Positions 7,591-10,428 of a stretch of 54,228 nt of DNA are shown here, in pieces. Both the position numbers and the translations under genes were made by a program. The notes under the pieces were generated by a model. That model was not told the origin of the DNA. It ran no database searches and saw only the letters and a list, made by a program, of their open reading frames with translations. The DNA comes from an uncultured Methanobrevibacter sp. (GTDB lineage: Archaea; Methanobacteriota; Methanobacteria; Methanobacteriales; Methanobacteriaceae). Positions within the stretch are counted from its first letter, which is position 1. Every line of letters begins with the position of its first letter. The stretch spans positions 1 to 54,228 of the forward strand of contig NZ_CADAJR010000023.1 in NCBI RefSeq assembly GCF_902788255.1, given 5' to 3'.

Positions 7591-7894
7591 TTAAATATTA
7601 TATTGATTTTCGACCATTAAAATTAATTCATCAAGTATTTTTCGTGCTTCTGGTGTGTTTAGGTCGTCTAGTTCGTTTAGTTTTTCGATTTGTTTTTTAT
7701 ATTCTTGGTTTGATTTTTTGAGATATTCGGTTTTTTGGTTAATGAGTTCTATTTCAAGATTTTTGATTGCGAGTTTGTGTTTTTCTGATTGCTCTTTCAT
7801 GGTGTTTGATTTCTATTATTTTGTCTATTCCAATGATTTCGTCTTTATAATATTCATATGCGAATTTTTCAAATTCATTTTCAAATTTTATCAT
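7591..7894 (-). pseudogene. Decayed second copy of the coiled-coil gene's 3' end
   Basis: Reading leftward, an ATG at 7894 opens MIKFENEFEKFAYEYYKDEIIGIDKIIEIK. The recognisable tail then runs in another frame from 7800 (MKEQSEKHKLAIKNLEIELINQ...). It ends KKSNQEYKKQIEKLNELDDLNTPEARKILDELILMVENQYNI, which repeats the end of the split gene at 7949-8722. I read it as a broken partial duplicate of that gene or of a paralogue. The 7591-7800 stretch could still make a 69-residue coiled-coil peptide. No function is claimed. Confidence 0.5.
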
Positions 7895-7948: not shown

Positions 7949-8722
7949 TCAAAGTAATTTTAATGAACTGAGTATTTTTCGTGCTTCTGGTGTGTTTAGG
8001 TCGTCTAGTTCGTTTAGTTTTTCGATTTGTTTTTTGTATTTTTCGTTGGATTTTTTGTATTCTTGGTTTGATCTTTTGTATTTTTCGTTGGATTTTTTGT
8101 ATTCTTGGTTTGATTTTTTGTATTTTTCGTTGGATTTTTTGAGGTTGTTGATTTCTTTGTCTTTTGCGTCGAGTTTGTCTCCGTATTCTTCATACAGAAG
8201 TTCATCCAATTCATTTTTAATCTCTCTCATTCCAATTACCTCCATTAATCTTTTCTGTTTGCTTTGATTTTGCACATGTTTTAAAATCATTCCACCTAAA
8301 ATGACTTTTACATCAAGCCTTAAACCTTTGTCTTCAATTTGGGCATCTCTAAAAGCTTCACACAGTTTTTCAATAACTTCCGGAGCATCTTTTTTTGATA
8401 TGAATTTGCTGGTGAATGCAATGTCCAATGCTTCGGTGTCTGTTAATGTTTCATTATGTTCAACCTTATTAATAATGTTTTCATATTTTTCCCACAGGGA
8501 GTCCTCTTCAAAGTAGATATAATGGACTTTGATGTAGAGTGAAGGTGCATATTCAAAGCATTCACTTTCTTTTTTAGGATTTTTGTGACAGATTACTGCT
8601 AGGTATAGTTTCCTTTTGAGATACCAGTAACAAAGAAATATTGCATATTTTGAAAACTTTTCAAGAGTTTTAGGGCTAATATATTCGCTTTCCTCCTCAA
8701 GGTCTATGAGCAAATCTTCATC
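7949..8722 (-). pseudogene. Rpn/PD-(D/E)XK-like coiled-coil protein, C-terminal part split by the IscB element
   Basis: These 258 codons, including the stop, read DEDLLIDLEEESEYISPKTLEKFSKYAIF at the element edge. Then come YLAVICHKNPKK, LDIAFTSKFISKKDAPEVIEKL, KHVQNQSKQKRLMEVIGM, and a long Lys/Asn/Glu coiled coil made of 7-residue units (KSNEKYK / KSNQEYK alternating, about five copies, 42-bp DNA period). The acidic EEESE segment and following strand suggest a PD-(D/E)XK-type nuclease of the Rpn/PDDEXK transposase-associated group; this is inference from pattern only. The N-terminal 61 codons lie at 10246-10428. Joining the two pieces gives one 318-residue frame. A downstream TTG at 8713 could still start a fragment. 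Confidence 0.65.
7971..8035. repeat. 65-bp direct repeat, second copy (first at 7634-7698)
   Basis: About 65 bases beginning AGTATTTTTCGTGCTTCTGG occur at 7634-7698 and again here in the same orientation. They encode the shared KQIEKLNELDDLNTPEARKIL segment on the minus strand. The repeat joins the 3' ends of the split coiled-coil gene and its decayed copy, and could be a deletion or recombination point. Confidence 0.75.
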
Positions 8723-8740
8723 TTATTTTGGCAAGGATAC

Positions 8741-8760
8741 CTCGACCTCTTTAGGTCGAG
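8741..8760 (-). terminator. 3'-end hairpin of the IscB element
   Basis: CTCGACCT-CTTT-AGGTCGAG forms a perfect 8-bp stem with a 4-base loop. It overlaps the iscB stop codon (8751-8753) and lies about 20 bases inside the element's 3' border. It may be the right-end structure recognised for transposition, a transcript end, or both. Confidence 0.55.
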
Positions 8761-9983
8761 GATGGAATTGCTATCCTCCAATCTATTAACCAACCTTTTA
8801 TAGGTTCTAATAATTTTAACTTCTTACTACTTACTCCTTGGCTGATTACAGTTCCATTGAAACTTTTCAGCTGAAAATACCCGCTGCTACGTTTTCCTGT
8901 AATAAAACATTCTATACTTTTATACATTACTTTGTCGTATCTTCTAAATCCATTGATGATGTATGGTGATTGGTTTTTTCGTCTTTGTCCTCCTTTACTG
9001 GGTTTGGCTTTGTGAATCTGTCGGTTGTGTCTTCTAACTTTTTTAAATAAATATTCAACATCTGATTGTTCAGCTTCCAAATTATGACTAATCACAAAAG
9101 CATCATTGCAATGGGACTTAACAATACCTAAATTCTCTCGAAGATACTTCGTTAAATAACCAAATGTTTCATAAACATTATTAAACTCTCTCTTGAGGGA
9201 TTCCAGTATTCTTTTTCTCATGATGTTCATGTGGCTTGCATGTTTAAATGTTTTTACTTTTTTGTTAAAGGTTAATTGTTTTTTATGGATTTTACTGTGA
9301 CAATCGCTGCATAATGTTACAAGATTGTCCATACGATTAGAACCGCCTTGACTTTTAAAAATGATGTGGTGTACTTCTAATTTTGTATGTTTTTTTCCAC
9401 ATATTTGGCATGTATATTTGTCTCTGCTTAAAACAGCGGATTTAACGTTATAGAAACCTTCAGCATCTCCATGCTGATACTCAACACCATTTATTTCAGG
9501 ATTTTTTAGTTTATATGTGTCAAATTCAGCAGTCTCAACAATAATGTTGTCCACTGGAAGTATACTGCAAACACGTTTAATCATAGTTAAATGACATTCA
9601 ATTTTATGCTGAATACTGGGAGCCAATTTTCCTTTTTTACTACGATTATTAAACCGGGCTGGACGATAACGTAACTTGCTCCTGCGATTCCTGCGCTGAC
9701 TCCTTCTACTTTCCAGTAATTTACTAATGTCCTGTCTTAATTCGACAGTGGCTTTGAATAATTCTTTTTTACTGGTTGTTGCAGACAATCCAATATATTT
9801 GCTTCCAGCATCAACACCTAGATTAACCGGTTGACGATAATCTGAAGATCGATGCAGTAATTGTATGGTAAATGGTGTACGATTCACAACTTTTGCTTTC
9901 TTATCTTTCAATAATATTCTTGCTTTTCTTGGTCGGCATGGCATTAACGGTTCACCATGCATGTTTAGTACGTAAACAAACAT
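8751..9983 (-). CDS. iscB: IscB RNA-guided endonuclease
   Basis: A 410-residue protein with the full IscB architecture. The N-terminal PLMP domain (EPLMPCRPRKARILL, residues 11-25) is followed by RuvC-I (NLGVDAGSKYIG, D58), an Arg-rich bridge helix (about 93-117), RuvC-II (IIVETAEFD, E150), and an inserted HNH domain with zinc cysteines 192/195/225/228, HH at 205-206, N220 and H229. RuvC-III (SHCNDAFVISH, H291, D294) and a C-terminal target-interaction region ending near GWLIDWR complete it. All expected catalytic residues are present. IscB is the ancestor-like relative of Cas9 and uses an omega RNA from upstream DNA to cut matching targets next to a target-adjacent motif. The ATG at 9983 follows AGGAGGT. 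The HNH inside RuvC and the PLMP domain exclude TnpB. It probably promotes retention and spread of the element. Confidence 0.92.
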   Translation of the reverse strand: MFVYVLNMHGEPLMPCRPRKARILLKDKKAKVVNRTPFTIQLLHRSSDYRQPVNLGVDAGSKYIGLSATTSKKELFKATVELRQDISKLLESRRSQRRNRRSKLRYRPARFNNRSKKGKLAPSIQHKIECHLTMIKRVCSILPVDNIIVETAEFDTYKLKNPEINGVEYQHGDAEGFYNVKSAVLSRDKYTCQICGKKHTKLEVHHIIFKSQGGSNRMDNLVTLCSDCHSKIHKKQLTFNKKVKTFKHASHMNIMRKRILESLKREFNNVYETFGYLTKYLRENLGIVKSHCNDAFVISHNLEAEQSDVEYLFKKVRRHNRQIHKAKPSKGGQRRKNQSPYIINGFRRYDKVMYKSIECFITGKRSSGYFQLKSFNGTVISQGVSSKKLKLLEPIKGWLIDWRIAIPSST

Positions 9984-10245
9984 AAATGTTTACCTCCTAT
10001 TCCTAAGTTTATATTTTTATCCCTCGACAATGTTATCCCAAGGTTTAATGTAAATTGGCACTGTTCCTACCATCTCAGAACCATGTTTAACCAATTACCG
10101 TAGAGCAAGGGGACTGGGATTAAACATCCCCTGGTACCTATAATATTCTTGGGTAACGTAGGTCAATAAAGACCCGAGTCTATTAAACTAGTGGACTTTT
10201 TAGAGTTATTTCTAAAAAATCCACGGCTTCTACAAGCCGTGGTAG
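9984..10245 (-). ncRNA. Candidate omega RNA (HEARO RNA) for IscB
   Basis: About 260 bases without an ORF between the element's 5' border and iscB, read on the minus strand. It begins with CCACGGCTT-GTAG-AAGCCGTGG (10242-10221), a 9-bp perfect hairpin, then a second imperfect stem at 10221-10193 (TCTAAAAA pairs with TTTTTAGA). A third is AGGGGATGTTTAATCCC at about 10133-10117, whose GGGGA also faces TCCCC just downstream. The region ends near the iscB ribosome binding site. IscB guide RNAs are encoded exactly here, with the guide at the 5' end taken from the flanking DNA. That predicts the guide as the 16 bases ending at 10246 (CTACTACAATATTAAA). RNA ends and fold are inferred by eye. Confidence 0.7.
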
Positions 10246-10428
10246 TTTAATATTGTAGTAGATTTCGTCTCCACGGGCTGAAGTCATGTCTGTAAAAACC
10301 ATTTCCTGGGGCAGTCTGACATCATACTCTCCAGGCAGATTCAGATACTGGTGCTGGCGCTTTGACTGTGCAAAGGACATGTATTTCAAAGTTTTGTCAT
10401 TGAGATGATAGGTTTGACTTAGTTTCAT
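10246..10428 (-). pseudogene. Rpn/PD-(D/E)XK-like coiled-coil protein, N-terminal 61 codons
   Basis: The ATG at 10428, behind GGAGATAGAATCCT, opens MKLSQTYHLNDKTLKYMSFA and reaches TSARGDEIYYNIK at the IscB border. In-frame translation runs on 20 codons into the element before a stop. The rest of the gene is at 7949-8722. The start has a good ribosome binding site and a TATA box at 10475-10483, so the gene was likely active before insertion. It was itself an addition between pfdA and ftsY. Confidence 0.75.

What the first reader, a model, noticed from the sequence alone, without database searches (positions are those of the whole stretch)
8723..10245. IscB/omega-RNA element inserted precisely in an archaeal gene, with predicted guide and target-adjacent motif
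The 1523-bp insert splits a coiled-coil gene so exactly that its removal restores the frame (codon 61 AAA joined to GATGAAGAT). In IscB systems the guide is the 5' flank and the adjacent motif is the 3' flank of the element. Here that predicts a guide ending in CTACTACAATATTAAA (minus strand, 10261-10246) and a motif GATGA, with ATGA fitting the recalled HEARO target preference. The empty site would be cut and the filled site protected, a homing-like logic. All RuvC and HNH residues are intact. A complete IscB locus with readable boundaries in a methanogen is notable.
Basis: partly seen in the sequence, partly recalled or inferred. Interest (0 to 1): 0.9.

Follow-up and report, generated by a model that had tools for sequence, protein, structure and literature searches.

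The report
Cas9-ancestor mobile element in a methanogen
A gut methanogen carries a complete mobile element that encodes an RNA-guided DNA-cutting enzyme (IscB, from the family that gave rise to Cas9) and its guide RNA; comparison with relatives fixes its ends to the base and indicates that it is moved by a borrowed single-strand transposase, whose DNA pairing rule also sets the motif next to which IscB would cut.

Summary
An intact 410-aa IscB gene (NCBIfam guided_IscB, 365 bits) follows an Rfam HEARO/omega-RNA (97 bits), inserted cleanly in a 316-codon gene that is uninterrupted in two congeners (Methanobrevibacter). Comparison of 21 sister elements puts the ends at 8722 and 10250 (1529 bp), not 8723/10245. 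The guide is GAAATCTACTACAATA (10266-10251, minus strand) and the motif is ATGA. The restored frame did not discriminate, because the two corrections sum to six bases.

The element has no transposase, but both its ends match those of resident IS605 (tnpA-tnpB) elements. The terminal bases and the ATGA motif pair with tetranucleotides beside the end hairpins, as in IS608; the rule holds in 58-59 of 60 omega-RNA starts, with compensatory changes between groups. Best explanation: a non-autonomous IS605-type element moved in trans by a Y1 transposase and kept by IscB re-cutting empty sites (inferred, not tested). IscB in archaea is already reported, so this is a new member of a known kind. Side results: omega-RNA-only mini-elements, and three insertions that lost exactly the DNA between two motif sites.

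The parts
8722..10250 (-). complete IscB/omega-RNA element, 1529 bp
   Evidence: end comparison with 21 congeneric elements and empty homologues
8751..9983 (-). IscB, 410 aa, RuvC and HNH intact
   Evidence: dN/dS 0.10-0.34 between genus members
10011..10250 (-). HEARO (omega-RNA) scaffold
   Evidence: Rfam RF02033, 97.4 bits
10251..10266 (-). predicted 16-nt guide GAAATCTACTACAATA (host DNA flanking the element)
   Evidence: position relative to the HEARO start; length of 16 nt taken from general knowledge of IscB
8716..8721 (-). target-adjacent motif ATGAAG (core ATGA; its complement TTCAT is the presumed transposase target)
   Evidence: RTGA at 17 of 18 readable right ends; present in both empty homologues
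10247..10250 (-). terminal tetranucleotide TTAA (cleavage site of the guide-side end)
10217..10220 (-). ATTT, DNA guide that pairs with the terminal tetranucleotide
   Evidence: IS608 rule (PMC5934647); covariation
10221..10242 (-). subterminal hairpin CCACGGCT..AAGCCGTGG at the guide-side end
8740..8761 (-). subterminal hairpin CCTCGACC..GGTCGAGG at the motif-side end, overlapping the IscB stop
8736..8739 (-). TATC, DNA guide that pairs with the ATGA motif
10251..10428 (-). 5' part of the interrupted host gene
7949..8721 (-). 3' part of the interrupted host gene (coiled-coil tail)

Best explanation
This is a non-autonomous IS200/IS605-type mobile element of Methanobrevibacter that carries iscB and its omega-RNA. 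A Y1 (HUH) transposase acting in trans, most likely that of the resident IS605 tnpA-tnpB elements, excises it as single-stranded DNA and inserts it 3' of TTCAY. The target is chosen by pairing with a tetranucleotide in the element's own end, so the same pairing sets the RTGA motif that IscB would need. The omega-RNA takes its guide from the flank it lands beside. IscB would then cut empty copies of the site and favour retention of the element through repair from a filled copy. Shown here by sequence: anatomy, exact ends, clean empty sites, ends shared with IS605, pairing rule. Inferred: movement by TnpA in trans, RNA expression, cleavage and homing.
For: IscB and HEARO family hits. Common exact starts in the sister elements and RTGA at 17 of 18 readable right ends. 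Clean empty sites, base-exact, for the window and for L059, L063, L065, L068, L069, L071. Nearly all Y1 loci of the genus show the same motif-side end (GCAAGAATACC plus hairpin, at TTTAT), and the IS605 in L270 ends ..GTCGTGGTAGTTCAA against ..GCCGTGGTAGTTTAA here. IS608 pairing rule: terminal bases pair with hairpin-foot bases in 58, 58 and 59 of 60 starts, shuffled means 22.7, 37.2 and 59. States: GTCA/CTTG, CTCA/GTTG, TTCA/ATTG, TTAA/ATTT; the first base changed at least four times on the IscB tree (my reading). Motif side: ATGA with TATC or TTTC, ATGG with TACC in Erysipelotrichaceae RD49, ATAA with TATT in the archaeal IS605. IscB is under purifying selection.
Against: No element-encoded transposase. 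No intact tnpA seen in this assembly: two open tnpA starts run off contig ends and the rest are broken. Of 13 HEARO-bearing genomes only G015 has a full-length uninterrupted tnpA hit. The resident IS605 uses TTTAT, not TTCAY. Two of the motifs are GTGA and one is ATGG, G:T wobbles under the rule; two ATCA starts break the pairing at position 1. No expression or cleavage data.
Confidence: 0.82

Rival explanations
1. The element no longer transposes; it spreads only by IscB homing, cutting empty alleles that are repaired from filled ones, like a homing endonuclease gene.
For: No tnpA in most HEARO-bearing genomes; IscB open in all 13 elements covered in full and under purifying selection.
Against: Elements sit at unrelated sites; four ORF-less copies at 99-100% identity lie at different sites in one genome, so recent transposition occurred. 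The DNA-level pairing rule is maintained.
Confidence: 0.1
2. IscB and its RNA have been domesticated as a host regulator or defence system, and the IS605-like ends are relics.
For: One relative (L061) has no recognisable motif-side end, and its guide flank matches 12 nt of an FMN riboswitch about 1.5 kb away.
Against: The window element keeps both ends, the pairing rule and all nuclease residues; its sisters lie at other sites.
Confidence: 0.05

Closest known systems
IscB/HEARO (OMEGA) systems, e.g. OgeuIscB
   Same: RRXRR, split RuvC with HNH, upstream HEARO RNA, guide in the 5' flank, motif in the 3' flank
   Different: archaeal lineage forming one side of a branch (93/88), 74-81% identical to its nearest kin; motif ATGA/GTGA known from comparison, not from an assay
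IS200/IS605 elements (IS608, ISDra2, and the resident Methanobrevibacter IS605)
   Same: subterminal hairpins, no target duplication, tetranucleotide guides paired with cleavage sites, target at one end and guide RNA at the other
   Different: no tnpA; iscB in place of tnpB; target TTCAY instead of TTTAT
MITE-like or REP/REPIN elements moved by Y1 transposases in trans
   Same: non-autonomous, small, ends recognised by a Y1 enzyme encoded elsewhere
   Different: carries an RNA-guided nuclease; ORF-less sister elements still carry a whole omega-RNA

Membership tests
IscB | RRXRR/bridge region with split RuvC and HNH, equivalog model hit | tested here: met
   guided_IscB 364.9 bits, cut-off 175; catalytic residues aligned with OgeuIscB
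IscB | RNA-guided cleavage of DNA next to a motif | not testable with these tools
   no biochemistry
HEARO / omega-RNA | match to RF02033 above gathering score, upstream of the ORF | tested here: met
   97.4 bits, full model 1-211
IS200/IS605 group | subterminal hairpins and guide/cleavage-site pairing at both ends | tested here: met
IS200/IS605 group | insertion 3' of a fixed short target without duplication | tested here: met
   empty sites base-exact; RTGA at 17 of 18 readable ends
IS200/IS605 group | own Y1 transposase gene | tested here: not met
   only iscB inside 8722-10250; so a non-autonomous derivative, not an autonomous member
CRISPR-Cas9 | CRISPR array with the nuclease | not tested
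   protein length (410 aa) and the equivalog hit point to IscB; Cas9d model far below its cut-off
PD-(D/E)XK (Rpn-like) nuclease, for the host gene | profile hit | tested here: not met
   no Pfam hit; only a D..LEEES motif pattern by eye among homologues

The most novel reading that the evidence does not exclude
A single transposase lineage serves both TnpB and IscB elements in this genus, because target choice lies in the element's DNA: one compensatory change in the end (AATA to GATA) moved the target from TTTAT to TTCAT and with it IscB's motif. In addition, integration can use two nearby motif sites at once, deleting what lies between (3 of 10 insertions with a known empty site).
Probability: 0.45. 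Interest if true: 0.65.

Novelty: new member of a known kind. Interest (0 to 1): 0.5.

Why it matters
Most IscB/HEARO genes lie apart from any transposase, and how they move is seldom shown. Base-exact ends, empty sites and a pairing rule that holds across bacteria and an archaeon give a direct, testable answer. They also let the target-adjacent motif of an uncharacterised IscB be read from its own end sequence.

Tried and rejected
Energy-minimised hairpin finding forced non-canonical closing pairs and shifted the tetranucleotides, so its counts were discarded. The first alignment-column count was out of register by one base between archaeal and bacterial rows, because the archaeal stem is one base shorter; one search uses a group-wise register, a choice I made after seeing the alignment. 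Searching the own genome for another target of the guide gave none with two mismatches or fewer other than the filled site itself, and 3-mismatch hits were no more frequent than in the reversed control. Pfam did not identify the host gene.

Full report
What is there. The window lies in a Methanobrevibacter genome: the nearest relatives of the protein are all in that genus. IscB (8751-9983, minus) and the HEARO RNA (10250-10011, minus) are beyond doubt. The genome has one copy. Residues D58, E150, H205/H206, H291 and D294 align with the OgeuIscB active sites and are invariant in eight genus members.

Ends. Twenty-two HEARO loci, the window's included, were found in 13 of 67 genomes of the genus. 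All but one start TTAAAC or TTCAAC (one TTCAACTG) exactly at HEARO position 1, with unrelated sequence before it (the exception is L061, GTCAGC). Four ORF-less copies in genome G060 share their sequence from that base to ..ATAGATGA and then diverge. Of 18 readable right ends, 17 finish ..G followed by RTGA and one (L066) by ATGG. The window element is therefore 8722-10250.

Host gene and empty site. The joined gene is 316 codons. G056 and G020 carry it uninterrupted, reading TACTACAATG^ATGAAAAT and TTTCAATG^ATGAAAAT. The insertion falls in a loop of variable length between two conserved motifs. Composite flank searches and alignment gave clean, base-exact empty sites for six more elements: L059, L063, L065, L068, L069, L071.

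Mobility. The element has no transposase. The Y1 transposase family occurs in 11 of 67 genomes of the genus. Nearly all Y1 loci show the same motif-side end as the IscB elements, at TTTAT instead of TTCAY, and the guide-side end of L270 matches too. In IS608 the bases 5' of each hairpin pair with the cleavage site: the published contacts are +16 with -3 and +17 with -4, and the guide/target pair AAAG/TTAC implies +19 with -1 (PMC5934647; the last is my reading). In the IscB frame, element bases 1, 3 and 4 should then pair with bases 1, 4 and 3 after the first hairpin. In 60 distinct starts the counts are 58, 58 and 59. The third pair barely varies and carries no weight: its shuffled mean is also 59. 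The first two exceed every shuffle, but shuffles ignore relatedness; on the IscB tree I count at least four separate changes of base 1, each matched. These positions are not paired with one another in the Rfam RNA structure, where base 1 pairs within P1; alignment columns show that RNA pairing as well. On the motif side, groups with several copies give ATGA with TATC or TTTC, and ATGG with TACC.

How it works. Inference: a TnpA in trans moves the element; IscB with the flank-derived guide cuts empty sites, which are repaired from filled copies. In this assembly two similar tnpA starts run open to contig ends, so an intact enzyme is possible but not shown. Four nearly identical ORF-less copies at different sites in G060 argue for recent transposition rather than homing alone.

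Known or new. HEARO/IscB in archaea is reported (PMC9755519, PMC12988326), as is the scarcity of TnpA beside HEARO genes. That IS605 transposases can move IscB elements in trans was, as I recall, reported for Geobacillus (paper not held). The pairing covariation across HEARO elements I did not find in the library, which holds only part of the literature. The Methanobrevibacter IscBs form one side of a branch (93/88) against bacterial ones at about 50% identity. Within the phylum, HEARO was found in 13 Methanobrevibacter genomes and, just below the curated cut-off, in one genome of another genus of the family.

Noticed in passing
L056, L064, L072 against L135-L137, L147, L148: Three insertions lack exactly the 230, 115 or 144 bp between two RTGA sites: in empty genomes the left flank is followed by ATGAA, while the filled right flank starts at a second RTGA downstream. 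Two-site integration, recombination of two insertions, or deletion between short repeats are all possible. For L072, G010 and G059 give 156 bp and no ATGA at the second site.
   Followed up: partly
L055-L060, L065: Seven ORF-less elements of 314-337 bp with a whole omega-RNA and both ends; four in G060 are 99-100% identical at different sites.
   Followed up: partly
L062 against L064: Same right flank, but in L062 a further 781 bp are missing on the guide side, ending exactly at the element's first base, so the predicted guide differs.
   Followed up: partly
L061, FMN riboswitch 2379-2515 and element start 4071 (minus): The guide flank ends TCTCAGGGCGGG, identical to 12 nt of an FMN riboswitch about 1.5 kb downstream, where it is followed by GTGC.
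   Followed up: partly
window 7591-7824: Remnant of a second copy of the host gene's C-terminal tail just downstream, 52% identical, with stops.
   Followed up: no
L173, L188, L191, L197: Erysipelotrichaceae RD49 elements use ATGG instead of ATGA, with the matching change TATC to TACC at the hairpin foot.
   Followed up: yes
L268 and L269 (G000:C8 and G000:C50 contig ends): Identical 94-bp IS605-type ends at TTTAT run to the ends of two contigs: an unresolved repeat in this genome.
   Followed up: partly
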